Assembly (NCBI GenBank): GCA_015039465.1
Contig: MU130702.1
Span: 332,861 to 396,860 of the forward strand
Length of the DNA stretch: 64,000 bases
From: Phlegmacium glaucopus
Lineage: Eukaryota; Basidiomycota; Agaricomycetes; Agaricales; Cortinariaceae
Direction of reading: 5' to 3'
The notes under the pieces were generated by a model. That model searched no databases. It saw nothing but the letters and a program-made list of their open reading frames with translations, and was not told where the DNA came from. Below are positions 5,101-63,900 of this stretch, in pieces. The position numbers were made by a program, and so were the translations under genes. Position 1 is the first letter of the stretch; the number at the start of each line of letters is the position of its first letter.

Positions 5101-8100
5101 CAGCCTTGGTACAGCTGGATCCTCAAAGGAAGCCGGGGTCGTTGAGGGAGATCCTCTTGACGATCTCTTTCCACGCGTTGAGATAGACACCCTTTTTAAG
5201 GGAACCACCGTGTTAACTGACGCAAAGAGTGATGCATGGAAGACCAAAAAAGACGCCCTCGAGGCTTTACAAGCAATCCTCGATCAGGGTAACAACAAAC
5301 GGTTGAAACCTGCCATGGGTAAATGATTTCTTACTCTTGTTGACATTTTACCCAATAACATATGAATATCCTTGCTTCTAGGTGAAATCGGGCAAATTCT
5401 CAAGGCAAGAGTAACTGATACGAATAAAGCCGTTCAGACCTTAGCTCTTGATATCGTGTCACGAATAGCAACGGGAATGGGGAAGGCTTTTGAGAGGCAT
5501 TCACGTCTCTTCACATTACCTATCTCTACTGTCCTCTCGGATCAAAAGGCCACTATCCGCTCTGCGGCTTTGCAAACCCTAACGGCAATAGCAGTAGCAT
5601 GTGACGGTGTCGAATCTATGGTCCCTGGCTTCACGACGGCACTTGAAACCACCAATCCATTACAAAAGGCAACCCTGTGTCAGTGGATTGTTGATTGGTT
5701 CAAGGACCATGATGCACCCTCCTCTCTCGATCTACATCCCTGGGCGGCTTTGGTTGTGTCGTCTCTTGACGATCGTAACAGTGATGTTCGAAAAGCAGCG
5801 CAAGCTCTTTTGCCTACCGTCATACAATGTGCTGGCTTTGATTTTGTTATGCAACAAACAAATTCATTAAAGCCAGCTTCACGGTCAGGTGCCGTACGTC
5901 TTGTCCAAGCCGCCAAGCCTGCAGCCCCGGCTAATGCCTCAAAACCAACAACAATAGGAAAGGCCTCAACTGTTTCAGACATCACTCCCCCTCCTCCGAG
6001 TCCTGCTGAATCACCACCGCCCGCTACAGTTCCTGACAACAAGCTTGCTAACAAAGGTTTAGGTGTTCGCCGAAAGTTGCCTCAGGGTATCAGCAGACCT
6101 GATTCTCGTGCCGACAATTCCGATGGGGCGACCAAGCCTATTCCAACCAGCAACAAGTCAATGACAACCCCCACAACAGCGACCAAAGCCCAAATCGTTA
6201 ATCATGTGCCGCAGACCTCCCTTCCTTTCTCTACTGTCAATCCTGAAGTTAAAAGGGCCAGGTTGATAAAAGACGCCAATCGATGGGTGAATGAAAGTGG
6301 TCCAACTAGGAAGGATCTCGCTGACTTGCTTCAAAGTCAGATGGAACCTTGCACTTCTAAAGACTTGGTAGCTCGATTATTCAGTCACGACCACAGTGCT
6401 GTTAATGACCACATCAATGGTTTGGGCGTTATGGCTGATTTCTACTCGGAAGCCTCAGGTGCTAACGAGAACATCGAAAAGCTATGTATTGCAAATCTCG
6501 ACCTTCCTCTCAAATACGTATCCATCAAAGCTCACGAGCCACAACCTAATCTTATCTCAAAATGCTTGGATGTCGTAGAAGCAGTGCTTGCATTCCTTCG
6601 CCATACCAATTACCAGTTCACCGATAATGAAGCAATGTGTTTTGTGCCTACCATGATTTATAAAGTAAGTTCGTTATTTCCTTCTGAGTACCATTCTCTT
6701 ACCAAACGTTAGCTTGGTGATGCCCGTGAACAAGTTCGGATGCGAGTACAGCAGATTATAAGAACCCTTCCAATGTTGTATGCGTACAGTCGAGTCTTTC
6801 AGATGCTATTGGATTACGGTTTAAAGGCCAAAGTAGCTAAAACACGCCAAGGCACATTGGACGAGCTATCTGCCATATTGAAAAAGTCTGGCATGGATGC
6901 ATGTGAACCCTCAAAGGCTTTTCCTTCAGTTGCATCCTTGCTTTCAGACAAGGATCCACAAGTACGTAAATCAGCACTTGGGACACTCAGGCAAGTCCTT
7001 TCTCCTCAGATCCGATGACTTTCCTTTGATATCATGTTCCAGTGAAGCGTACTCTCTTGTGGGCGAGAAGGTGTGGTCTCATGTGGGCCCTCTGTCATCT
7101 AAAGACAAGACGCAGCTTGAAGAGCGTTTACGTCGGGTACCAGGCCCAAGCACCCAGGGGAAAACCGAACCCCCTCCCATCGCACCTGTTGCACCAAGTG
7201 GCGTTGCGCGCCTAACCGCCAATGCTCCAAGGCCGGCCAGTCCATCTATTACGGCTGCCTCTCGAATAGCTCGGCCCTCATCTCCCGCAAACACACTTAG
7301 AACAGCTTCTCCCGTTCCTTCGCAAGCACGACCTGAGTCCCCTCTCCGTCAAGGTGGATCCAATCCAGCTACAACGTCTGTTGCGAGTTCTCCTGGAAAG
7401 GCAAGACCTCGAAGCATGTTACCTTCGCGGCTGGGCCGACCTCGACCCAACATTCCTCAACCACCTGTTGCCAATCTCCCTCAGGATCACGAGGAAGCCG
7501 AAGAGCTACGGCCTTCTTCCAATCCCAAATCTCCCCTTGATGACATCGCAGCTGATCCCGAAGTCAATTCTCGACCGGACGCCCCCGACGACATCACACT
7601 TACAATATCTAGTATATTGAGTAGCGATCCTACACGCAGCGTTGATGCCCTCAAGAAAATTCAAAAAATACTCTCTGTCGGTCCTGACAATGGGCCGTCA
7701 TCGCCCCTGTATCGTGAACTTGCAGAGCACACCGAGGGCCTTATAGAGACGATAACCCTACAAATGGCTCATATATTTGAACATCCCGACGATCTCATTG
7801 TGGAAGATAACTTTAGGTTGGCTAAACATCTCATACAGACTCTCAATAATTTCTGCGATCATGCATTCTTGGCTGAATCTCTGACAGTCGACATTTTAAC
7901 TGCACTGCTAGAGGAGTTGACTCTGCGACTTCTCGAGACTGACGATAGTCCTGTCAAGAAGATAAAAGAATTATCTCGCTTCATCAATATGATCATATTG
8001 CGTCTATTCGCGACAGGAAGAAGAATGTCTATATTCCGGTGGGTACCTTGCACCGACATCGATCATACTGGCTGATAAATTTAAAAGGGCTCTTTTCGCT

Positions 8101-40356: not shown

Positions 40357-43300
40357 TCAAAGGTAACGAAGCGAGTCTATTCCAAGACTCCTCCTCGCAT
40401 GGATAATGGCTACCAATTCTTTAATGTTTTCTTCTAAAATCACGACGTTGTCTAGTAACTGAGATAAGGTCACGGAACTCATCTGTGTTGTCTTCTCGTC
40501 CTGATGAGTCTGTTCCGTCTTCTCCATCCACCCAGATCCAAAGACGTCGTCCTCCATTACTGGCCAACTCTTATATTTAGAGGGGGTCCAAGGTCCAGAA
40601 CTTGGAATAGGAGCAATAAATGGTTCGACTTTGACCGAGCTAGTGTGTTGATAGTGCGTGCCGAAAGGACTTGCTGATACAGATTTAGATACCAGTTTCT
40701 GAGGTGGCGTCGATGGTTCGGGTGGTGCTGCCGGTTTGGCAGGTCTGCTCTTCTTTGGCGTAAGGAACGAGACAAAGGATGAGGAAGCGGATGATTTAGG
40801 TTTCGTTTTTGGTTTCTGAACCACCTCTGCAACTGGTTTCGACAGTTGTGGTTCATTGGTGATATCCAACGCCAGACTGAGCGCATCAGTCAGGTTCTCG
40901 GAGAAGAGCAGTCCTTGCCGTCTTTCAGCCAAAAACTTGTCAAAATTATCAACTGTGTGGCGATAGCGTTCAAGCTGAGTGACGAGCCCGTGGAAAATAG
41001 TATGCATCACAGGCCGAGTGTTTTCGTTCAAAGTGGCTGCTGGTAGATAGTTTGTATCATTCGCAAGTTTTTCCTCTATTTCGAAATCGAATGAACGATC
41101 ATCTTCGTCTTGGTCATTGTCAGCGGTTTCATAGAAACGTTTATTCAGAGAAGATGAGTCATTCAGATTGAACGTTAACCAGCCAGCCAATGATCTATCG
41201 GGATGAGTTGCAAGTGTTGCAAACACTCCCGTCAAGCCGATATTGAAGTCAGGGGTGTTGGAGAAGAACGTTGTCAGTGATTCAAGTAGGAGAGAAACAA
41301 TGGGGTCATTGACATTCAAACGATGCTTCAATCTTGGTTTTGGGTCTCCACCTTCGAGATCTTCAAGGCTCTCCCAATACACAGGCTGACTCTGAATCGT
41401 GACCAGCGCGTCATGGAGATAGTGGTCGTATCCTGTGCTGAAGCTGTCGCCGTCATGAGATGGGTCCACTCGAGATATTAAGGCAAGATACAGGCCCATT
41501 TCGCGTTCATGTGTTGAATAGGTTATTTCTGGTTGCACAAAAAGCGGACCATTCAGGGAAGAAGACAGAGAATTTGATTCATCAGCATCAGGATACTTGA
41601 ACTCCACATCCTCGTCCTCTTCCTCTATTGTCGAACTAATTTCCGGTCGTTGGGGTTGTTTAATAATGGCCGGGTGAGGAAACGCAGTTGCAAAGGAATC
41701 AGGAGTAACGATGAGAATGCGTTCGATGGTAAGTCGAGGATGGTAGAGGAGCATCGTCTGGAATAATTGCAAAGTAGCGGTTGTAGTTGGCTGAGACTTG
41801 GACCGTAGGTTGGTCAGCAGAAGATCCTTGAGCGTAAATCGACCCATGGATGTAAAATAATCTGAAGGTTTTCGTGATGCAGGAGCTTCCATCTCCAAAA
41901 GGGTCATCGCACTGCTTTGCCTTCGTCGGTGCCTCGTCCGTTTATCATCAGATGATTGAGAGGGTGGAACGCCAACCCCCAACGTTAACATGGCGTGTGA
42001 CCGTTGCTTTGAACGAGGATCGTCATTGTCCTCGCTAATGAGAAAATCTACTAGCAGATTGGCGAGAGGGCCCTCGCGCAGAGTTCTTACCATGACCTCT
42101 ATGTAGGACATAACGGCAACAGCACTTCCGTCCGTGTCAGAACATTCCAAAATGGAAGGATACAGAATGTTCTCAAGAAATATTCGCCGCACGGCGTCCA
42201 AGATGGATTGTACGATGGCCGTTCCTACGAGAGCTGAAGCATTCGCATTTTCATTGGTAACGTTCCGTCTTAGGACGTCCTGCAGAAACATGAGAAGCTT
42301 GAGCAAATGGTCGATCTTTGCTTTGAATTCAGGGTTCCTCGCGTCTTCAATACCCATGGCAAGATTTTTCTCCCTTTGGGAGGCGAGTTGCTCCCTCTCT
42401 TCGTCCGCTGCCAAACCAGTTCCGCCGATCTTCATCGCGTTATCTGATTCAGAGGTCGCGGTTTGAGGGAAGAAACCTAGTTTGGTGGGTAAAAGGGAAT
42501 ATACAGCTCCGAGGCCGGCTCCTAAAACTTCTGAGAAGTCGCCATCTAGAATGTATTCTGCTAGCGCTAGCGCAGCATCGTTGATAGGATCAAGGACAGG
42601 CAAGTTTTCGTCGCTCTTTGTCGTCTCCGTTTCAGATTCCCCTGTGGACATTGCGACATCCATGAGAAATAGTAATCCCGCTCGAGCAAATTCCCCAATG
42701 TGGCCTTCTCTGTGAACAAACCGCAGAAGGTAGTTGAATAAGAGAAATTCATATTCCGTTTTTTTGGTGCCTGGAGGTTGGGCGGACTCGGAAGTGACGG
42801 CTGTATGAGATGGAATCAAGCTTGAGTCGCCCGTATCCTTGTCAGAGCTCCCAATTCTGATTCCTTTCAGCGTAGCATCGGGGTCGTCCTGCTCATTTTC
42901 CTCATCCTCATCCTCATCCTCGTCCTCGTCCTCGTCCTCTTCAACAGAGAACAAGGGTTCAGATCGATACCAATGTTTGTCGTGAAAGAAGATCATAAGT
43001 AATTCACGATATGTCCGGATTCGACTGCATAAAATGCAGAGTAAATGAACCACTAAAGAACCAAAAATGAGAAATGAGGAATTTTTAGACAGAAAAAATA
43101 CAGCATTACAATCTTCTTCATGTTCTGAAGGTTGCGCACGAGTAACATTACGTGCTGCACCCATTAATTTACTTCGACCATCCAATTGTTCCTGCAAGTC
43201 ATCCCCGACACAATTACGAAGTAACCGAAGAACAGCCTTGTGTACCGCAGAATGTACAAGGAATTGTTCGTCCAATAGCACGACCATATTGGAGACGGCT

Positions 43301-43813
43301 CGTAGGACTTCGGCTTGAATACCAGCAGGACGATCCGATTCACTCAATCGAACAAGGGTTCCCAATACATCTATCGAGCAGTCAGAATTTTGCGGGCTCC
43401 GCCCAAAATAGCGATATCCAGACCATTCTTGAGAAGATATTCCAGGCAAGCACCAGTGCCTCTATCCAGTAATAGTTGAGGTGTCAGAAAGTTTAGTCGT
43501 CTGAATTAGAACACAGACGTACCCTTCCTCAATCCTTGTTGATTCCCAGACCAGAGAATCAACCATAGACCGTAGGTGGATAGGGACATCCGTCGAGTTG
43601 ATTCCCTTGGTCAGTTGACGTTCATCTGGCATCAACAAAGTGTTCTACAGAACATAATGATGGTCAGCCTGAAGACAAAGGATGATTTTCGACTTTTTAA
43701 GGCTAGTGACCTTGACGGAATTCCACGAATTGTGAAATGCTTGTGCATGATCAACTTGAGCCTTTGGAGATGGTTGACCAGTGGTTCTGAGGAACTTTGA
43801 AAAGTAATCCATG
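40357..43813 (-). CDS. FHF complex subunit HOOK-interacting protein (FHIP/RAI16-like)
   Basis: Exon 1 begins at 43813 ('MDYFSKFLRTTGQ'). Two further introns lead into the long body. 'CSRIRTYRELLMIFFHDKHW' and 'EYEFLLFNYLLRFVHREGHI' plus 'EFARAGLLFLMDVAM' are family hallmarks, and the protein ends 'LVAIIHARRSLGIDSLRYL'. FHIP links the dynein adaptor Hook and the FTS protein to early endosomes for long-range hyphal transport. A 57-bp segment at 43053-43109 has GT...AG ends, is divisible by three and has no in-frame stop; family continuity says it is an intron. A simple acidic repeat encoding Glu-Asp runs lies at 42901-42940. Two low-complexity Pro/Ser stretches lie near 40700-40800. Confidence 0.88.
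42901..42940. repeat. Trinucleotide-pair microsatellite inside the FHIP-like gene
   Basis: Six near-perfect copies of CTCATC/CTCGTC encode alternating Glu and Asp on the minus strand. Length changes would keep the frame in steps of 3 or 6 bp. Confidence 0.85.
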
Positions 43814-44130: not shown

Positions 44131-47100
44131 TTAAATATTCCCGCAGATGGAACAGTTAAAGTGTATACGTTCCCGGAATAAAGCAGCTGCAGAGGTTGTC
44201 ATGTCAGATGGCGGAGCCAACAAGAGGGTTGAGCAACAACTTACGCAGGACGATCAATGATGCGAGAAGAGAGACAATGAAGACGTAGACCACTGTGTAT
44301 TTGATGACTATCCAGCGTCGTTGCCTCTTCTGTTTGGTCGAGAACAACGGGGCGCGAATCTGTTTCGACGGCCGAAGCCAGACTGTAAACCAAATGTCAG
44401 GGAAAAAAAGGTTTAAATATGAGAGAGACACGTACACAGCATCATCGAATGCAAGCTATTCACATACGGTATAAGAACCGGTGGCGTCAAGATAATAAGC
44501 AACAGATGCCCAAGCAAGAAATCCGAGCTCCAAAGTGACATCTCCACAACCTTGACGATGAACTCTCTGGCAGGCTGGGACATGGCAGAATTACCAAGTC
44601 CACGTCCATACCATTTACCCGTCCACCAAGCACGATTGGTCTCGTCGTGTTTGAATTCACGAGTAAGAAAAGCGGCGATCAGGATCTTCTGAATAGCACG
44701 CTGGATGGCGATGATGGCGATGACACCCAGCACAGCATGTGAGGCATCCCAAAGTTCAAGGAACCACTATACAGTCAAGGTCAGTTGTCAAGGGACGAGA
44801 ATTTTTTGGACTGTAACGCACGAAGAACTCAAAGATAGCCACCAATCCGAATAGACACAAGCCATGCGCCAAAAAAGCCATCAATGACCCAAACTTGGTC
44901 CACGACTCCATCATAGGTCCTAAAAACAACGAGATGAAGAAGAGTGTAATAAGGACGGCAGCATTCCATGCAATTGGTCCAATGGCGACAACCCCAATCC
45001 TGACTAACGGACTAGGATGCTGGTTCCCATTCCTGTCCGGGAACGACTTGACAAACATATACGCAATCACAAACAAAATCGCAACGCATATAGGCCAAAT
45101 AATCTCTGAAAAAATGACAGTCCTCCATGTTGCTCGGGGAACATCGCCAGACAACTTTTCAGAAGGATGGCCTAGTTTCTTCTTTTTGAACCCAGTAATC
45201 ATAGTTCTTGATAATCGGCAATAGCCATACCAGCTGCTCGCCTTGGTTCTTGAGTTACCACGCGACATCCAGCGGAGGAATTCACGATAATCGATGATGA
45301 AATCCGCGTATGAGAATTGGTGGGGGTTGAAGAAGAAGGGCGCAATGCAGAGCGACAGGACGGATAGCCAGAAGTAGATGAGATGAGGAATCCAGACTGA
45401 CATGGTGGCATAGAGTAAGATAAGAAGATTCCGCATGCCCATGTATATGCTAGGACCAGCAAATCGGGAATAGAGGATACTGAAAGAGATTCGGCTAGTG
45501 GCGAATCCACGACCGGTTGCGATGTATCGGGCACCACCGAACGTCAGATTGCTCAGAATGGAGTTGGAGTAGATCTGTGTTGAAAAGACCTCGAATACTG
45601 GTGATAATGAAAGGAAATGTTTGCCTAGTCGAAGGAGCGCCTTGCCTGTACCTCTTTCCACGAGTTCTAGACACATTGATTAACAGACAAAGAAAAAGTA
45701 TCGGAAGGAGAAGACATACCTTGCAAGAACAAAGGCAAGAAAGCGATGATGAAAACCAAAAAGATGGATATAATGCAACGTCTAATCCAATCAAAGACCG
45801 GAATAAGATTGTAGCATCCAGGTTGGCCGCCAATAACATTCCCCTGCGAATCAACTCTACAAATAGCCAGCTGTTTGTTGAGGGTACCGATGAAGAGCAC
45901 TGGAGGGTATTAAAACATACAGTAAAGGAAAGAAAGAAAGAACGACGCACAAGTGATCATAAACACCTGAATGGAATAAATGACCAGAATATTGTTAATA
46001 TGGAACCCAGGATGTCCATAATAAAAAGTCAGAAATCGATCAATCGGAAGCTGCGTTCCCAAATAATAATACTCCCGACTGAGCATTTGTTCACCCATAC
46101 CAGTCCCAATCTTCGTCTGGAAGTTCAAGATCGTACCAAACCCTAAATCACGTCCTTTGCCACATTGATAGTACTCGGAATGTTTGATTCGACCACCACG
46201 TCCGAACGCGTTCATGCCCGCAAAGATATCTTCGTTGAGATGAAGTCCTTTCTGTGCTTTAGATACCCCTCCACGAGTGTTCATGAATGTAGCGTTCAAG
46301 AAATCAGGATGTCCATAATGCAATTTGCCTCCAATCCATGCTAGTGCACGCGCCGTAAGTGTCCCAAACGTCTGCTCCTTCCCTGCAGCGATATCACCTA
46401 AAACACCAATATTCTCCGAAAAGATATACTCCCTCGTACCCACAATCGCCACGGGAGATCTTGTAAACTCTTTATGTCCCCACTGAGCATACGGGCTCTG
46501 ACTAGACACCGAATATTCCTCAAACTCTCCAAGAATATTCCGGATCTTCAAACATTCCTCCAGATAATTATCTTGATTCGCATCGATGAGTTGCAGATAT
46601 TCTCCTCTATAGAAAATCATAGCGTGGTTCTGATTATCTGATTTTCCATCTCCAAGGATAGGGTTTCCAGGAAGTTCAACTCGAAATTTAGGTTTCCTCT
46701 TGCCAGTCTTCTCATCCAACTCGGAATGTCCATCGATCAGCGCACTAAACAACCTCGCCTCTCCACCCTTCTTCGTACTAGGCTCTTCATCCAAATATGC
46801 GATCTGTAAATCCGGATAAGCACGTAGCAGAAACTCGGCATTCTCTTGTTCCTCTTTATTGAACTTGGAGAACCGTTGCATCGAAATGGTCACTTTGAAT
46901 TTACGTCTAGCCATCCTCTCCAATTCACGTTCGAGGCGCTCGGTGTTGCTCCCGAAATTATGCACGATATCGGGATTCTCGACACGGTAGAGCAATTTGA
47001 TAGCTTTCGAATAATTCATCATACCAGAAACGGTTCTATAAAGCGTCTGTGCACGCAACGAAGCCCAAATCCGAGTACGCAAGGTATATTCTGGCGAGGA

Positions 47101-49758
47101 AGTCTTGAATCCAATGCAGTAGAAAGGCAGATCATCTGTCTTGCTAGATTTCTCATCGCCTTCTGTCTCTTCAGCTAGGATCTTGGTATCTTTGACGAAA
47201 TTATCCCATTCCACAGGGTGCAGCTGTTTGAGATACTCCAAAAGCGTCACCCGAGTATTATGATCTTCTTCCCTGATGATCTCACGAAGACTGAGCAAGA
47301 TCTTTTCTGAATAATGGGGGATGAGAACCGTGAATGTAGGCATGGCGTCAACGGGGAGAGGTTCAGGGAGAGCAGTCGTCAATGAAGAAGCAAAGAAGGA
47401 AATGCGACGTTCAGCTTCGCCTCCAGCCGGGAAAAAGTTGCCTTTAAATCCAGCACCATCTTGATTTGTGAAAAAGGGTGGCGCTCGAAGTGCGCGACTG
47501 CCGTTAGGCCCGTCTACTTGATGATACAATAATCGTTGGACGTGGCCGATGGAGAGGAGATGTTCACGATACATGGAAATAATAACCGCATTCCAGATCT
47601 GGGAGACGAGAACTTTAGGCTTATACTTGACCTCCATCTCAGCAGTAGCGAGGAGCTTGGCGTAAATCCTTTTCGGAAGCCTGGTGTAAATATCCTTCCA
47701 CGGTGTCCAAATGGAAAGACCAAGGGAGAACGAACGGCCAATGCTGAAGATGACGATCCAGATGATGTACCAAAGGTAGGTGTCCAGGAAAAAGAGGACA
47801 AGATCCATGACATACATGATGGCCAATGTAAATGGGACATGGTTAGTGCACAAAGCATTGCCGAAGAATTTGTCGGTACAGCCTTGTACTCTCATCCTTG
47901 CCATGACAGTAATAGGGCTACTGAAGGACGAGGTTAAGAAAAAATAGGATTCGGTAAACTTGCATCCAAAAATGAGGAGCCACAGGGAGATGGAAGCAAT
48001 GCGCGAGCTGCGAGTTAATGTAGGGTACGAGGCCGTAAAAGTCTGCGAAGCCATGTACTTGCGCGACTTGCCCGCCACCCTATCACCAAACATGCGGCCT
48101 GACGGAATGATACCAAAGGCGATTGTGACCACAACTGAGATGAAGAACTGAACGATAGCCACAATAAGTGGAATTTGAGTCTTGGCGGGCAAATGGTCCA
48201 CCATGGCGACGTAAAAAGTGGGTCCAGCCGTAAGGGCAAGGATGACAAGGAGGAAGATGAGACGTGTGGTGAGATGAGAAGCGTTGTTCCAAGTCGTAGG
48301 AATGTATGAAAATTCAGCAAGAGTGGCAAAAATCATGATGAGGGTGGAGACGGCACCACCCAAAGCTACAGCAGACCAGGTCATTTCTTGAGAAGGATTG
48401 GCTTGGTTGGCTGGCGCGTAAACGCGGGGTGAGTTGAAGGACGTGTAAAAGTAGTAGACGGAGACGTGGAGGATCCAGATCCGGTTAAAGTTGACCAAAA
48501 GGTGGGCAATGGAGCGTTTCTCGTAGTAGGTTTTAAAGAAGACTTTATCCCATTCAATCTGACTGAATTTCATGTAACGTTGGGCAGGTGGGATATCGAC
48601 GAGACGTTGCTAAATATATAAATTAGATAGGAAAGAAGGAGTAATTGTGAAACTTTACATGGCTTTTAAGAACAATCTTAGCAAGACCTTCTGGGTACCA
48701 AAAGAGCTGATTGACGTCGTCGTAACCAATAATTTGAGCGTGATCCTTTTCCTTTCGTACGAATTTACCGTCCATGACTTCATAACCTTGGTCGCGCATG
48801 AAACGGTAGAGGGGTTTGATAACTGTTTCAAGATAGAGACCCTCTTGGACTGGTTCGACCCTGCTCTGGCATTCTGGGCTGCGATAGTAGTCGTCTGCAC
48901 ATTTGAAGATAAAACAGAGGCATTCTGGAACAAAACGGACATTTCCAGCCTCGCCCCAGCACAAGAGGTAGAGTGCGATTTGACGAAGGCGATCATACTG
49001 ACTCATGTTGTTCATGGCGTTTCTCCAGCGGTTAAGAGCGGTATCAAGAGATTTTGTACCTGCAGATTTGGAGCCCCCCTTTGAAGATTTGAGACGCTGG
49101 AGACCTGGGTTTTGAGATTGACCGACTGCGTCGTCTAGGTTTAATTGAGCTGCAAAGTACCATTTACGGTAATTTGCATGTTGACCGCCTATGTAGTCGG
49201 CGTGGAGTGTGAGAAGGGCCTGGTTTGGAGACATGCGAGAAGCGCGAGAGTCGAGGAGGTGCATAGTAAAATCGAACTGAACAAGAGGGGGTGAGTTAAA
49301 GGGATTATTTTAAAATATGGGAAGAAAAGTGGTTACCATGTTTCGCATTGAGTCTCTCTGAAAGCCAAACTTCTGAGTAAGGTCGAGAAAGATGTCTTCT
49401 ATTTCTTCTGCGGACATGGGAATTTGGCGGTCTGCAGACCAAGCCGGGTAATGGTCTGAAGAACCAAGACCTGGGTCTGCAAAGGGAGAAATGCTGGGTA
49501 TACTCGAATGAGAGTCGACGGAAGGATTGTAAGAGCGACCATATAGATCTGAGGTTGGATCTCCTGGAAAAGAGGGGTGAGATGTAGGACAATAAAGGGA
49601 TGAAATGTAAGGTAACCAGGATGGTCTAAGAAAGGATTTGCGCCAGCGAGTCTAGTAGTAGTACTCGAGTTTATAGAATAATGGTCTCCTGTATCAGAAT
49701 CAGCTTCATCATGAGATGAAATGAATTGTTGGGAGAAAGGATAGTGATTCTGTGACAT
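44131..49758 (-). CDS. FKS1: 1,3-beta-glucan synthase catalytic subunit
   Basis: This polytopic plasma-membrane GT48 enzyme polymerises UDP-glucose into the main cell-wall glucan and is controlled by Rho1. Exon 1 starts at 49758 ('[20 protein letters not shown]'). The cytosolic N-terminal domain has '[20 protein letters not shown]' and '[20 protein letters not shown]'. The central catalytic domain shows '[20 protein letters not shown]', '[20 protein letters not shown]' and '[20 protein letters not shown]' with '[14 protein letters not shown]'. About sixteen hydrophobic spans flank it. The last intron at about 44186-44242 restores the C-terminus '[17 protein letters not shown]' (stop 44131). 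The length of roughly 1,750-1,800 residues is normal. Echinocandin hotspot regions lie at 47914-47940 and 45766-45792. Its start is only 73 bp from a divergent gene. Confidence 0.96.
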
Positions 49759-57236: not shown

Positions 57237-58184
57237 CTGACCTTCACCGTGACGTAAGGTAATATTATTCTCATGAACAATTGACGCTTATACTTAGGTT
57301 TAATATTTTCATAATTAGTTTCCTTTCCTTCATTGATATTACTTGAGGCCTATGTCGCCGGAAACTACTATGTACAAGGTTCAGACTTATTTAAGGTGTG
57401 ACAACTCGAGCCTAGGCCATTACCTGCCATTACCTTATGAGATCACATGCACGACTTGCTCGAAATAGTCAAGACTCAAAGGGTGACCGTCACTGTGCGA
57501 TCTTTATAAATGATGCCGTAAAACGTGCACCCCGCAACAGAGCGCTATTCCTGTGGGTATTTTTAGGTCTCAGACAAGGCCGTTCCTTCTGATTAACAGA
57601 ACCTGGGAGTGCGCTTGAGAAATTGGTAGTAAGCGCACAGGCTCTGAGAGGACCATCAATTAGTTGGACGACCGTTGGCATGCGGAATTTTTGCAAGATG
57701 TATAGATTTGTTGAAGTAGATATAGGAGTAAATAAAGCCTCGGCTTTTGCCAACTCGCTAAAAATACTGAATTAGAAACACATGATTTTGGCTGTTGAAC
57801 TTATCTAACAAGTTGTTCCGCCACCACCACTACCACCACCACTACCACCACCACCACCACAGAGCATCATGCATCATCATTCGTGTTAAGCATCAGGAGG
57901 ACTGCGGCAGCGAGAGTATCGGGGACCTTCGGGTGGTGAGAGAAAGGAGTTGGCGCCTTAATTTCAACTGCGGTCCTGGCTCCGACTGTATGCAGCTGTA
58001 TGCTTGAAAGTGACAGATTAATAATAATAAATTACGTATTAATAAATACCATATGGCGATGAGGCTATGTCAGCGCTATGTATCTCTTTGACCTCCATTT
58101 TGATTTTATTATGACATTATTATCGCCGAGCAGACATATAATCCTCACCCAAATCCCGCTTTCCACCCCCTGTCCTTGTCACCC
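57237..58184. other. Intergenic region with a microsatellite and a weak open frame
   Basis: An open frame at 57490-57753 (-) has no recognised family and is not called. A (CCA/CTA)n tract lies at 57821-57860. The remainder is the upstream region of DPP3 and of the GH5-like gene. Confidence 0.4.
57821..57860. repeat. CCA/CTA trinucleotide microsatellite
   Basis: About thirteen CCA units with two CTA interruptions are present. The tract is intergenic and no coding frame is supported around it. Confidence 0.9.
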
Positions 58185-60561
58185 ATGTTACTGTCTCTCC
58201 TTGGGCAGGTCGTCCTCGCCGCCCTCCTGGCGTCTGCATTTACCCCAACGCCGACATTGACCAGAAGGACCAATGGACCCCTCCCACCTTCCCAGTTTGT
58301 TACGACTCAGAACGGCCAGTTTTTCTTCAACGGGACGTAAGGCCATCTTCGTGATCTTGCTTTCAACGGGAGCTCATCGAATAATTTAGTCCTATAGCAT
58401 TTGTTGGCACAAACGCATATTGGTTGCCGATATTGAATTCGGATCAGGACATAGACTTCACTTTGGGCAACATGTCGAAGGCAGGGATCACGGTGGTTAG
58501 AACGTGGGCGTTCAATGGTCAATCTCTTCCTCGTCTTAGCAATTTTATCGTTCAACTATGCTCTTACAGATGTTCAGACAATTCCTGAAAATGGGACTTG
58601 GTTTCAGTTGATCGCCAATGGTGCCACCACTATCAACAATGGAACCAATGGTCTTCAGAAGCTTGATACAGTGGTCCGGCTCGCGGAGAAGCACAATATA
58701 TTCTTGCAATTAGCACTTACAAATAATTGGAATCCCCTTCCCCTCCTGGATAACGTTGCCGCGGGCCTATCGATCAGCGCCAGAGATGTGACCAATGGTA
58801 CAAATACCACTCTTCCGAGAAACACACTCAGTAACGATTATGGTCAGCAATTTATTAATTATCTTGCATTCGAACTCACGGGGATTGTACAGGAGGGATG
58901 GATGTCTATGTCCGAGCGCTCAGTAATTCTACCACGCAGTCGCACGATGACTTCTATTCAAACCCAATGATTCTTAATACCTTCATGAATTACACAACTC
59001 AAATCGTAACTCGATACGCCAACAGCCCCGCGATATTTGGCTGGTAAGTATTCTTGGTTCCTCGCCTTCACCAGAGCATACTAACCTCGGTCCCGATTTT
59101 TACAGGGAACTTGCCAATGATCCCAGGTACCTAAAATACTTCTGTCACCTATTCTTCCTCACCTTGTGATAGGTGTAACTCGAGTATCTCTGGGACCTCG
59201 CAATGCTCGACACTAACCGTTACGCAGTGGCATTCCCAAGTTGCTCAACACGTCAGCACTGTTGACCCCAATCATCTTGTGACTTCTGGGTAAGTCGATG
59301 TGGTCATTGACCAAGTTCTTCTTTCAATTAATATCTTCTCCAGCAATCACGGTTTCTTCTGTGTCGATTGTCCTAAACTGTTCCCCAGAGTCACGCCTCA
59401 ACCATCGCCATCGCCATCGCCTGCTCCTGGTGTCAGACGTCGTTCGCCGAAACCGAAACCTTTGACCAAGTATAGGTTGTTACAAGAACGAAGAGCTGCA
59501 TGGAAGAGGTTTAGGGACGCAAAGAAACGTTCAGCGCCGGGTCAAACTATTCGAGGAAGATGGATCGCTCCAGGTATACTATTTCTTTTGTACGGTTTAC
59601 CAATTTATAGCTCGATTTTCTCTTACAGAAACAAGACGTCAATTTGATCAGGGTATGGGATCGGCCTTCGATGGTTCTTCAGGTGTAGACAGTGAAGATA
59701 TCATTAACATCCCACAAATTGGATATGGATCTTTCCAACTCTTCCCAGATCAAAATAGCTATGGTCCCGACGACCCAAATCTTCCTGCTTTCAATAATAC
59801 GGTACAACAAGGCTTGTTATGGATTCAAAAACATGCCCAGCTTGGTCAATTGTAACTATATTTTGTTCATATTTTTCTTAATTTTTCTTGATATCTATCC
59901 TCCCAGGTTCGGTAAACCCGTGTCTCTGACAGGTTTTGGTCTTGTAACGCAAAACAATACCCCCTTTTTCGTCCCCTTCAACACTACAGAAGCCCCTTTC
60001 GCTTCTGACAATCGTGTGTTTAACTAATTGTCCTTTTTATTGGCACCAAGTACTCACTCCTTATTCTAGCACCCACTGCAACGCCAGTTCAACAACCCTT
60101 TGTCACCGATGATCAACGAGATGACGCTTATACCCAATGGCTGGAAGGTTTGATCCAACCCTTTTATGCACCATATCACGACTTGATTTTTTTCCCGCAA
60201 AACAGCTGGTTTGCAAAATGGATTGAACGGGATGCTTCAATATCAGGTACATCATTCTCTTTTGATGCATCATCATTCTTTGTCTAATAGCTCTGCTGTT
60301 TTTAGTGGTCACAAGACAATCTGACAACACAAGTGGGTACGGCAATTCAACCCACAGTTAGCGGTACAGATGTTCAACCTACCGTCACCGGAACCGGGCT
60401 ATCTCCCAACGATGGTTATTCAATCCAGGGTCAAGGGTGAGCTTATTTTATGAAATAGATTCCATAGTACTCACTCCATCACATCTCTCAGGCTAGCGAG
60501 TGTTGTCAATACTATCATGGTAGCTGCACAGGGATTTGCAGCAGACACGCCTGGGAGATGA
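58185..60561 (+). CDS. Secreted GH5 (mannanase-like) protein, probable pseudoenzyme
   Basis: The ATG at 58185 starts a signal peptide ('MLLSLLGQVVLAALLASAF') with a possible dibasic processing site (TRR). The GH5 barrel follows: 'AFVGTNAYWLPILNSDQDID', 'MSKAGITVVRTWAFND', 'DVYVRAL', 'NTFMNYTTQIVTRYANSP', 'GWELANDPRC', 'HVSTVDPNHLVTSG', 'NIPQIGYGSFQLFPDQ' and 'GKPVSLTGFGLVTQNN'. In active GH5_7 mannanases the acid/base Glu sits in 'NEP' and the nucleophile in 'EE(F/Y)G'. Here these are Asn-Asp-Pro (59116-59124) and Thr-Gly-Phe-Gly (59929-59940). An extra Pro-rich, strongly basic insert of roughly 80 residues (about 59390-59645, 'PSPSPSPAPGVRRRSPKPKP') interrupts the barrel. About ten introns are present. 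It may bind mannan or wall sugar without cutting it, by inference. Confidence 0.85.
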
Positions 60562-60969
60562 GGAAAATCTGCAATACGAACTTTGAAATCGCTATGTTTT
60601 TATCTGCAGCGACATGGTCTTTTTCTCACGAACACTTCAACGGACACGTCACGATCGTACTAATACTTTTGTTCTTCATGCGCATCGTCTGAATGTGACT
60701 CCTTGTACAAATATTGCAGAACGATGCGGGATATTTAGACTCACTTACCTTTGATTTACACTTACCTTTGATTTACACTTACCTTTGATTTACGTACTTA
60801 CTCATTTCAAAGCACGGCTACCTCTTGGTGAAGCGCAAAAAATATATTTTTGATATTTTGAAACATGCCGAGGACATCCTGCTCAGTACGACACTCCCTA
60901 TCACATATCACGCGACGCGTTTGTGACTCAGATGCTTAATCCCACTAACATTGGTTACTCAGTTCAACC
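60562..60969. other. Intergenic region upstream of RAD3
   Basis: No coding content is supported. It contains the 17-bp triple repeat described separately and an A/T-rich stretch at about 60838-60866. Confidence 0.4.
60743..60793. repeat. Three perfect tandem copies of a 17-bp unit
   Basis: The unit ACTTACCTTTGATTTAC occurs at 60743-60759, 60760-60776 and 60777-60793 without mismatches, about 180 bp before the RAD3 start codon and 180 bp after the GH5-like stop. Confidence 0.97.
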
Positions 60970-63900
60970 ATGAAGTTCTTCATTGATAATTTACCAGTAG
61001 GTCCGCTTTCAATTGTGCATGAGCACTGACCTCGTATTCCGTAGATCATTTTCCCTTACGACCGCATCTATCCTGGTAAGGGCACTCCCCACCCATTATA
61101 ACCACTATGAAGCCTTTTCTAAAAAGTCGATGTCAGAACAATATGCTTACATGTGTGATCTCAAAAGAACTCTAGATGCAACTGTGATTTCCTTTTCCTA
61201 CCTTTCAGGCATCCTTCATGAAATCATCATTAGGGTCATTGTGTGCTGGAAATGCCCTCGGGGACGGGCAAGACGGTCTCTTTGTTATCTTTAATTGTAT
61301 CTTATCAACAGGTGCCTCTGCCCTTTCATTTTCATCCCAATTATTGACTAGTTGTCCTTCTAGTTTTTCCCTTCACGTCGGAAACTCATTTATTGTTCAC
61401 GTACAGTTCCTGAAATCGAGAAAGCACTCACGGAACTCAAAAGACTAATGGAATACCGAATATTGTGTGCCGAAACCGAGGAACAGAAAGCCAAGGAACA
61501 GAACTTCATGGGCTTAGGTCTGACAAGTCGCAAAAATCTATGCATCAATCCAGAGGTATCATTCTCGCCCATCTGTTCTATATTAATAAATCAAATTCAC
61601 CTCAACTTGAAAGGTTGCCAAGGAGAAGAAAGGCAAAGTCGTAGACGCACGATGTCGAGACTTGACTAATTCGGCTGCTTGTGAGAAAGGACGGGCAAAT
61701 CCAGGTTCTGTTGAAATGTGTGATTGGCATGAGGTTTCTCATAATATAAATGTCTCCCCTCGTTTTGGTTGTTCATGGTCTTTCAGAATCTGGGGAAAAT
61801 GGAAACTGGCAGTTTCATACCTTCCGGAATATGGACTTTAGCCGACGTCTTGCAATACGGTCGGAATAAAGGCGTATGCCCTTATTTTGCGGTTCGTAGG
61901 ATGGTGCGTGATTCTATTTCTGTATGAGGTGCTTATGATTATTGATAGTGAAAGATAGATGCCTTTTGTTGACATTATTATTTACTCCTTCCACTACCTA
62001 CTTGATCCCAAAGTCGCCGAACAAGTTTCTAAAGAAATATCCAAAGATGCTATCGTGGTCTTCGATGAAGCCCACAACATTGGTCTGTCTGGTGCTACAC
62101 TACCTAGCGAACCTACTGAAGCTGAGAACCCTTGCAGACAATGTTTGCATCGAATCATTGAGCATTGATCTTACAAGGCCGATGCTAGATGCCGCTGGCC
62201 GCAGTGTAATAAAGTTGTCGGACAAAATTGATGAGCAAGTTTTTTTTCAGTGTCACAGGAGCATTTGTTCAACTGACATAGAGTCAAGACAAATGATGCT
62301 GCCAAGCTACAGGATGAATACGCCAGGCTGGTTGAAGGTCTGGAGGAATCGATGTCAGACCATAATGATACCGACAGCTTCGTGGGTAATCCATGTACGT
62401 CGAACAAAACTTTATGTCGCATATTCTTATGGTGTTCAGTGTTACCTGATGATCTCTTGAACGAGGCAATCCCGGGAAATATTCGAAAAGCAGAGCACTT
62501 TGTAGCATTTCTGAAACGATTTGTTGAATATCTGAAGGTAGTCTTCCCGCTTTGAATAACAATGTGATTACTTAAAGTTATCCAGACCCGAATGCGCGTT
62601 CTTCATGTTGTGGCCGAAACTCCTCTATCATTCCTGCAACACCTGAAAGACATAACCTACATTGAAAGACGGCCGTTACGGTATGGATTGGACGTTCTTC
62701 ATTGAATGTCTCGATGCTAATTCTGACCTGACAAGGTTTTGTGCCGAAAGATTACAATCTCTCATTCGAACTTTAGAGCTCAATCGCCTTGATGAATATG
62801 CGAGCCTCCAGAAAGTTGCAAGTTTTGCGACCTTAGTCGCTACCTACGAGAAAGGTATAATCTATAACCCTTTTCAACCTGTCAAACTCAAAACGTTTTT
62901 GATTCAGGCTTTCTGCTCATTCTTGAGCCCTTCGAGACCGACAATGCAACGGTTCCAAATCCAGTCTTCCATTTCACGTCAGCCCATTCCTTCGTGTCTT
63001 TTCAGTCTCTCACACAATCTGCAGGTGCTTAGACCCATCTCTTGCTATCAAGCCCGTCTTTGAACGGTTCAGCAGTGTCGTCATTACATCAGGGACAATA
63101 TCCCCGTTAGATATGTATCCCAAGATGTTGCAATTCACGCCTGTTGTGCAGGAAACCTATCCCATGACATTGACGCGCAATGCTTTTCTACCCTTAGTCA
63201 GTTCGTGACTGAACGCCACATTTTTCAGACTAACATTCATGTAGGTTATCACTCGTGGTAGCGATCAAGTCGCAATTAGTTCCCGGTTTGAAGTCAGAAA
63301 TGACCCCGCCGTGGTTCGCAACTTTGGAAGTATCTTGATAGAATATAGTAAAATTGTTCCGGATGGCATTGTGGCGTTCTTTCCAAGCTATCTCTACATG
63401 GAGTCAATAGTAGCTGCATGGAATGACATGGTAGGTGCAATATCCACCCTCTGTTTATAGAATTTGTTGCTTATCAATGTATCAGGGCATTCTTAACGAA
63501 GTGTGGAAACACAAGTTGATCTTTGTAGAGACGCCAGATGCCAATGAAACAAGTATTGCCCTGGAAAACTACAGGAGGGTGCGTAAGGATCTCTGGCAAC
63601 TTACAGCATATTCAAAGACCATTTGACAGGCCTGTGACAATGGTCGTGGAGCTGTTCTTTTGTCCGTTGCTCGAGGCAAAGTGTCGGAGGGAATCGATTT
63701 CGATCATAATTATGGACGCGCTGTGATTATGTTTGGGTATGTCGGATCCAGGTTTTCCACCTTCTCCCCTAAACAACGGGTTGGCAGGGTTCCCTATCAA
63801 TACACTGAAAGTCGGATTCTGAAAGCTCGCCTAGAATACCTCCGCGACGCTTATCGAATACGAGAATCTGAATTTCTTGGATTTGATGCAATGCGAAATG

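What the first reader, a model, noticed from the sequence alone, without database searches (positions are those of the whole stretch)
58185..60561. GH5 mannanase-like protein that has lost both catalytic glutamates
The barrel and signal peptide look well kept, and the reading frame is maintained over about eleven exons. Even so, the acid/base motif reads Asn-Asp-Pro rather than Asn-Glu-Pro, and the nucleophile motif reads Leu-Thr-Gly-Phe-Gly rather than Leu-Glu-Glu-(Phe/Tyr)-Gly. Both changed codons lie inside exons, so mis-splicing at the codon itself is not the cause. Loss of both residues with an otherwise conserved fold suggests selection for a non-catalytic role, such as glucomannan or wall binding, sensing or decoying. 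This is inference.
Basis: partly seen in the sequence, partly recalled or inferred. Interest (0 to 1): 0.75.

Follow-up and report, generated by a model that had tools for sequence, protein, structure and literature searches.

The report
Ancient dead mannanase of mushroom fungi
This mushroom gene makes a secreted relative of a mannan-cutting enzyme that has lost its cutting residues; the same loss is shared by relatives in several fungal orders, so it looks like an old, preserved protein with another, still unknown, job rather than a quirk of one gene.

Summary
In detail: the gene (58185-60561, 13 exons, 573 aa, identical to an NCBI protein of Phlegmacium glaucopus) reads NDP at the GH5 acid/base and LTGFG at the nucleophile. 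It is not peculiar to this gene. In the 152 listed relatives the acid/base column is Asp in all 150 with a residue, and none has an acid around the nucleophile strand; 120 intact mannanases have Glu in both columns. The 32 relatives treed form one clade (100/100) spanning several Agaricomycete orders. Three more positions of the catalytic set changed, and the conserved Trp became Tyr. The same genome keeps an intact GH5_7. The clade fits the description of CAZy GH5_30, called in 2012 the only GH5 subfamily wholly without catalytic residues; no reference sequence was available to confirm this. New here: a basic insert of about 84 residues (8 in intact enzymes) with invariant Cys, Lys, Arg and Trp and two conserved dibasic, Kex2-type sites ([KR]R in 149/152, [KR]RQ in 140/152), motifs rare in intact enzymes. 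Best reading: a secreted non-hydrolytic GH5 scaffold or binder, possibly matured by Kex2.

The parts
58185..60561 (+). whole gene, ATG to stop; 13 exons: 58185-58336, 58390-58517, 58570-58842, 58893-59043, 59106-59126, 59173-59289, 59344-59573, 59629-59851, 59907-60013, 60070-60147, 60206-60246, 60306-60436, 60492-60561
   Evidence: splice model, 573 aa, introns GT-AG; 100% identical database protein P0001
58185..58268 (+). N-terminal signal-peptide-like region and short pro-region ending in a dibasic RR (residues 1-28)
   Evidence: sequence; helix 4-16 in the model; crude hydrophobicity rule met by 130 of 152 clade members, dibasic at 20-36 in 98 of 152
58734..58832 (+). clade-specific insert 1 (residues 149-181) after the NNW motif; median 34 aa (15-48) in the clade, 0 in 120 of 120 intact enzymes; P149, R177, L180, S181 invariant
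   Evidence: block pLDDT 51-72 over 151-180
59119..59121 (+). D240 (GAT), acid/base position, Glu in intact GH5_7
   Evidence: D in 150/150 clade rows with a residue (2 gapped), E in 120/120 intact
59345..59350 (+). N282-H283, the GDE loop (D-E in 120/120 intact enzymes), variable in the clade
59360..59377 (+). C287-V-D-C290-P-K292: C287, C290 and K292 invariant in 152 of 152; the two Cys columns hold no Cys among the commonest residues of intact enzymes
59363..59663 (+). clade-specific basic insert 2 (residues 288-369, exons 7-8 with the intron between); median 84 aa (76-94) against 8 in 120 of 120; median net charge +14 over 300-362; modelled helix 323-344
59426..59449 (+). dibasic site 1 (residues 309-316, RRR in this protein), [KR]R in 149 of 152
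   Evidence: shuffles: mean 35.6, maximum 53 of 152
59634..59642 (+). dibasic site 2, R360-R361-Q362; [KR]RQ in 140 of 152 (141 with a window two residues wider)
   Evidence: shuffles: mean 2.4, maximum 7
59760..59762 (+). Y402 (TAT), invariant in 152 of 152; placed on the Trp of S-W-G in some solved enzymes (alignment here is loose)
59929..59934 (+). T440-G441 (ACA GGT), nucleophile position; Glu-Glu in 120/120 intact enzymes
60241..60243 (+). Y506, beta-8 position of the conserved active-site Trp; Tyr in 150/150 clade rows with a residue, Trp in 118/118 intact

Best explanation
The gene encodes a secreted GH5_7-like (beta/alpha)8 barrel that no longer hydrolyses mannan: it belongs to one old agaricomycete clade, most likely CAZy GH5_30, in which the nucleophile is lost, the acid/base Glu is fixed as Asp and neighbouring catalytic residues are replaced (shown by alignment; inactivity is inferred). 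Because the fold and a new set of residues are kept, it most likely works as a non-catalytic scaffold or binder in the fungus's own wall or extracellular matrix (inferred), presenting a clade-specific basic insert. The two conserved dibasic sites suggest that it is cut by a Kex2-type protease in the Golgi, either nicking the barrel before Gln362 or releasing the basic segment of about 315-361 (inferred, untested). The GH5_7 with intact residues in the same genome is the better candidate for mannan breakdown.
Against: I found no expression, proteomic, binding or activity data tied to a named clade member. D240 is invariant, more than an idle pocket needs, which leaves room for altered chemistry. 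Dibasic site 1 and the insert helix are modelled as ordered (block pLDDT 86-95 over 301-340), so release of a peptide is less likely than nicking. Other [KR]R pairs occur inside that helix, and 92 of 152 clade proteins have one or more outside 290-365, mostly in insert 1 or near columns 420 and 220, so not every dibasic can be a cut site. In the Kex2 paper, peptides were still made in all kex mutants and six kep knockouts had no phenotype. The 152 and 120 proteins are the best-listed hits of three searches and related by descent, so counts are not independent and transitional forms ranked lower would be unseen. GH5_30 membership rests on description only.
Confidence: 0.63

Rival explanations
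1. Retained lectin: the protein kept mannan or glucomannan binding without cutting and acts as a wall-binding, sensing or decoy protein on plant polymers.
For: Fold kept. N146, W147, R88, N239 and R242 kept. The aromatic platform is largely kept as Trp or Tyr: W147 151/152, Y506 150/150, Y402 152/152. A GH5 that lost its acid/base and binds cellulose as a sensor (Rsi24C) is described in PMC3526467 section 31.
Against: No measurement. Two columns that are Trp in 120 of 120 intact basidiomycete enzymes hold no Trp in the clade (108 and 400), but this is weak: the solved ascomycete enzymes lack Trp at 108, and at 400 the alternative alignment puts their Trp on Y402. CBM1 motif in 0 of 152 against 83 of 120 intact enzymes. 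Two inserts lie in loops next to cleft motifs in the sequence.
Confidence: 0.26
2. Re-tooled enzyme: the clade catalyses a different reaction, with invariant Asp240 as general acid and either water activated by another clade residue (an inverting or lyase-like route) or the substrate itself helping; the nucleophile is not needed.
For: D240 is invariant (150/150) beside invariant N239, with R88 145/149 and R242 148/150; Y506, D398, Q399, D372 and D381 are at least 95% conserved in the clade and differ from the commonest residue of intact basidiomycete enzymes. Aspeborg et al. allow 'alternate mechanisms' (PMC3526467 section 31).
Against: No acidic residue at or near the nucleophile strand in any of 152; His and Tyr of the catalytic set are replaced and the GDE loop is variable; Asp is shorter than Glu; D398 is not new, since solved ascomycete mannanases have PD there too.
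Confidence: 0.17
3. Ordinary mannanase with low residual activity, Asp doing the job of Glu.
For: A carboxylate remains at the acid/base position.
Against: No acid at the nucleophile in 152 of 152 and further active-site positions changed.
Confidence: 0.03
4. Pseudogene, sequencing error or mis-spliced model.
For: None beyond an exon of only 21 nt carrying D240.
Against: Open over 13 exons, identical to a public annotation, same residues in relatives of several orders.
Confidence: 0.01

Closest known systems
CAZy GH5_30 (Aspeborg et al. 2012, PMC3526467)
   Same: In that paper: 5 sequences, fungi only, all lacking the essential GH5 catalytic residues, several annotated as mannanases, in a tree block lying between mannan-acting subfamilies that include GH5_7. 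The clade here fits: for example the Coprinopsis cinerea member P0064 is called 'CEL4b mannanase'. A 2025 paper still lists GH5_30 as uncharacterised (PMC12751061, one passage).
   Different: No difference found, but no GH5_30 reference sequence was available, so the match is by description. The basic insert and dibasic sites are not mentioned in the passages I saw.
GH5_7 endo-beta-1,4-mannanases (e.g. PDB 1qno, 3wh9, 3ziz; intact paralogue P0121)
   Different: Both catalytic Glu, the GDE Glu, the His and the Tyr are replaced and the beta-8 Trp is Tyr; two inserts of about 34 and 84 aa; CBM1 motif in 0 of 152.
KEX2-processed secreted proteins of Agaricomycetes (PMC9769878), especially the GH128-domain protein 365456 of C. 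cinerea
   Same: Secreted protein with a glycoside-hydrolase domain and dibasic sites, one followed by Gln as in the pyro-Gln peptide found there.
   Different: No repeats, so not a KEP; site 2 lies between barrel strands (277-279 and 391-395 in the model), not in front of the domain; the paper's main text does not mention GH5 or mannan.

Membership tests
GH5_30 | all members lack the essential catalytic residues | tested here: met
   acid/base Asp in 150 of 150 rows with a residue (2 of 152 gapped), nucleophile column acidic in 0 of 152; listed rows only
GH5_30 | fungal only | tested here: met
GH5_30 | members annotated as mannanases | tested here: met
   names 'mannan endo-1,4-beta-mannosidase' or 'CEL4b mannanase'
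GH5_30 | separate clade near GH5_7 in the GH5 tree | tested here: inconclusive
   one clade at 100/100 beside GH5_7 (32 of 152 clade rows, 19 of 120 intact, 15 of 80 bacterial); other GH5 subfamilies were not in the tree
GH5_30 | sequence match to the reference members listed by CAZy | not testable with these tools
   sequences are in a supplementary figure that could not be read here; the main text holds none of six fungal names tried
GH5_7 beta-mannanase | (beta/alpha)8 mannanase fold | tested here: met
   (predicted model)
GH5_7 beta-mannanase | acid/base Glu after beta-4 | tested here: not met
   Asp240
GH5_7 beta-mannanase | nucleophile Glu on beta-7 | tested here: not met
   Thr440; no acid in 436-446 in any of 152
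GH5_7 beta-mannanase | hydrolysis of beta-mannan | not testable with these tools
   needs purified protein
GH5_7 beta-mannanase | nests inside intact fungal GH5_7 in a tree | tested here: inconclusive
   clade and intact basidiomycete enzymes join at 87/43 only; ascomycete enzymes were not knowingly sampled
Kex2-processed secretory protein | signal-peptide-like N-terminus and conserved dibasic sites | tested here: met
   130 of 152 by a crude hydrophobicity rule; both dibasic sites in 138 of 152, shuffles at most 4
Kex2-processed secretory protein | cleavage in the cell | not testable with these tools
   needs N-terminal sequencing or peptidomics
KEX2-processed repeat protein (KEP) | several repeated core peptides between cleavage sites | tested here: not met
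   single insert; no repeat seen by eye in its column profile; no repeat finder was run on the protein

The most novel reading that the evidence does not exclude
The clade is a Kex2-matured pseudo-mannanase: a catalytically dead GH5 barrel whose real product is either a nicked two-chain wall protein with a pyroglutamate at position 362 or a basic, RGRW-bearing peptide of about 47 residues cut out of the barrel between two conserved dibasic sites. It would then be a candidate for the unknown Kex2/Kex1 substrates whose loss blocks fruiting in Coprinopsis cinerea kex mutants (PMC9769878).
Probability: 0.28. Interest if true: 0.72.

Novelty: new member of a known kind. Interest (0 to 1): 0.5.

Why it matters
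GH5_30 was listed in 2012 as the only wholly non-catalytic GH5 subfamily and in 2025 as still uncharacterised (PMC12751061, one passage); the three papers in the held library that name it give no function in the passages I saw, one gives expression. Showing that such a loss is old and shared by several fungal orders, and that the clade also carries a basic insert with two near-invariant dibasic sites, turns 'dead enzyme, function unknown' into specific tests in a tractable mushroom. It also warns that these proteins, often named mannan endo-1,4-beta-mannosidase in databases, should not be counted as mannan-degrading capacity of mushroom or mycorrhizal genomes.

Tried and rejected

Limits of the counts. 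Searches each scored the 7993 candidates sharing most words, found 380 and 378 proteins and listed 120; the union, 152, is the clade set, all kept, fragments and likely gene-model errors included (P0053 reads H-W and P0090 M-G at the nucleophile pair, P0024 and P0045 have a gap at the acid/base column). One search found 2070 and listed 120, the intact set. Rows below the lists were not seen, so transitional forms may exist. The bacterial outgroup was found with patterns one of which contains NEP, so its Glu is no evidence. The tree used 66 of 352 available rows; its deep forks in the clade are weak, and Lentinula, Moniliophthora and Marasmius rows (Agaricales) join Boletales and Russulales rows at 89/88, which does not follow the orders. 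The CBM1 pattern was recalled.

Errors of mine. One search was a first exon guess in the wrong phase; one search replaced it. One search printed the acid/base column one residue early (it shows N); its motif windows are right and one search has the correct column.

Full report
What is there. The window lies on contig C242 of a 60.5-Mb assembly. The gene at 58185-60561 (+) splices into 13 exons with GT-AG introns of 46-62 nt and a 573-residue open frame. A database protein annotated 'glycoside hydrolase family 5 protein [Phlegmacium glaucopus]' is 100% identical over all 573 residues (P0001); the species is in Agaricales, Cortinariaceae. D240 is encoded in the 21-nt exon 5 and T440-G441 in exon 9, neither codon split by a splice junction.

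Is the change real? In the five alignments shown to solved GH5_7 sequences D240 falls on the Glu of NEP; the nucleophile stretch is aligned in four of the five and only below significance, so I rely on the 272-protein alignment. In it (152 clade members, 120 intact enzymes) the acid/base column is D in 150 of 150 clade rows with a residue and E in 120 of 120 intact rows; the nucleophile column is T 107, N 16, S 10, A 4, V 4, L 4, I 3, G 2, H 1, M 1 against E in 120 of 120; the following column is G 124, A 21, S 6, W 1 against E in 120 of 120. No clade row has any acid in 436-446. Other members of the catalytic set changed as well: the E of GDEG became Q, G, S, H or A; the His of F-H-x-Y became Gln in 136 of 151; the Tyr became Phe in 149 of 152; the beta-8 Trp became Tyr in 150 of 150. 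That these residues form the GH5 catalytic set is recalled knowledge of the family. So the active site was rebuilt as a whole and kept that way. Conservation is uneven: D240, N239, N146 and Y506 are invariant in the clade, while the nucleophile column (1.66 bits, 70th percentile of entropy among 335 core columns) and the GDE loop (85th and 68th percentile) drift. That argues against a nucleophile-based reaction and for a structural, binding or altered role of the Asp side.

How old and how constrained? The named relatives come from Agaricales, Boletales, Hymenochaetales, Russulales and other orders (names; their orders are recalled). In a tree of 66 rows (32 of 152 clade, 19 of 120 intact, 15 of 80 bacterial) the clade is one branch at 100/100 with a long stem (1.02 changes per column), and the Boletales, Russulales and Hymenochaetales rows each form a group within it at 100/99 or 100/100. 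Deep forks are weak, and Lentinula, Moniliophthora and Marasmius rows join Boletales and Russulales rows at 89/88, against the orders. One origin followed by mostly vertical inheritance is the simplest reading, not a proof. Whether the clade is sister to the intact basidiomycete enzymes is unresolved (87/43). Over 351 pairs of 27 species that have both proteins in my lists the clade protein is 64% and the intact enzyme 74% identical on average over 370 shared columns, the clade being more diverged in 341 pairs, median distance ratio 1.45: faster than the enzyme, far from free drift. P. glaucopus itself keeps a GH5_7 with NEP and LEEFG (L019, P0121).

Sugar platform. Trp147 is kept in 151 of 152. 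Column 108 and column 400 are Trp in 120 of 120 intact basidiomycete enzymes and hold no Trp in the clade. I first took this as loss of the platform. On recheck it is weak evidence: the solved ascomycete enzymes also lack Trp at 108, and at 400 the alignments shift their Trp (S-W-G) onto Tyr402, which is invariant in the clade (152 of 152). With Tyr506 in place of the beta-8 Trp, the clade may keep an aromatic platform of Trp and Tyr, so carbohydrate binding remains open.

What is new in the clade. Two inserts separate it from intact enzymes. Insert 1 (149-181) has a median of 34 residues (15-48) against 0 in 120 of 120. Insert 2 (288-369) has a median of 84 (76-94) against 8 in 120 of 120, and a median net charge of +14 over 300-362. 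In insert 2 and at its edges C287, C290, K292, R351, W354, G373 and G376 are invariant in 152 of 152. A dibasic [KR]R stands at 309-316 in 149 of 152, and [KR]RQ ends at 362 in 140 of 152; both in 138 (141 and 139 with a window two residues wider). When the residues of 300-362 are shuffled within each protein, site 1 appears in 35.6 of 152 on average (maximum 53 in 500 rounds), site 2 in 2.4 (maximum 7), both in 0.5 (maximum 4). Among intact enzymes 6 of 120 have any [KR]R after residue 25 and none has [KR]RQ. Against this: the rows are related by descent; [KR]R pairs also occur inside the helix of the insert, and 92 of 152 clade proteins have one or more outside 290-365; and site 1 and the helix are modelled as ordered (block pLDDT 86-95 over 301-340; 65-79 over 341-370), so nicking at 361/362 is more plausible than release of a free peptide. 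A CBM1-type motif is found in 0 of 152 clade proteins and 83 of 120 intact ones.

How it most likely works. Shown: secreted-looking N-terminus, mannanase fold in a model, no retaining machinery, deep conservation, a conserved basic insert with dibasic sites. Inferred: it does not cut mannan; it acts as a scaffold or binder in the fungus's own wall or matrix, because it lacks the usual CBM1 anchor of the intact enzymes and is kept across fungi of different lifestyles (recalled); and it is matured by Kex2. The precedent: in C. cinerea a GH128-domain protein is cut at Kex2 sites and its peptide is found as pyro-Q, and loss of kex1, kex2b or kex2c abolishes fruiting through targets that the authors could not name, for which they suggest screening proteins with carbohydrate-active domains (PMC9769878, abstract and passages seen). 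Against a peptide role, the same paper found the peptides still present in all kex mutants and no phenotype in six kep knockouts.

What is known. Aspeborg et al. 2012 (PMC3526467; [quoted passage not shown] The clade fits this description. I could not compare with a GH5_30 reference sequence, so the label is very likely but not proved. Three papers in the held library name GH5_30: the 2012 paper; one that lists it among uncharacterised subfamilies (PMC12751061, one passage); and one on Phlebopus portentosus that lists it among genes lower in stage P than in stage S (PMC8511702, one passage). A search for 'non-catalytic GH5', 'inactive GH5' and similar phrases returned only the 2012 paper. That I found no description of the insert and its dibasic sites is a statement about these searches and only.

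Verdict. The part worth following is the conserved, apparently Kex2-directed insert.

Noticed in passing
44756-48609 (-), with a further frame 48623-49309 (-): A 1,3-beta-glucan synthase (FKS1 type) gene about 9 kb from the finding: Pfam PF02364 in two frames and PF23605 in one; the third frame looks like its N-terminal part by eye.
   Followed up: partly
40357-43461 (-): Large frame with RAI16-like (PF10257) and DUF5917 (PF19314) domains.
   Followed up: no
5366-6712 (+): Frame with CLASP/TOG-type matches (PF12348, PF21041), likely a CLASP/Stu1-like gene.
   Followed up: no
about 60970-62460 (+): Frames downstream of the finding look like an XPD/Rad3-type helicase by eye (recalled resemblance); the one 37-aa piece tested gave no Pfam match.
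   Followed up: no
60744-60794: Three head-to-tail copies of a 17-base unit 3' of the gene (starts 60744, 60761, 60778).
   Followed up: partly
57818-57859: CCA-rich simple repeat upstream of the gene.
   Followed up: no
L021 (own genome C50:33000-38000): Two adjacent, very similar GH5-type gene segments (NNEPH motif) suggest a tandem duplication of another GH5 gene.
   Followed up: no
database proteins P0053, P0090, P0024, P0045: Clade members whose public gene models deviate or have gaps at the active-site columns, possibly exon-prediction errors.
   Followed up: no
P0229: A protein whose name quotes a Neosartorya fischeri database header sits inside the intact basidiomycete GH5_7 group next to Ceratobasidium; a transferred name on a basidiomycete protein seems likelier than gene transfer.
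   Followed up: no
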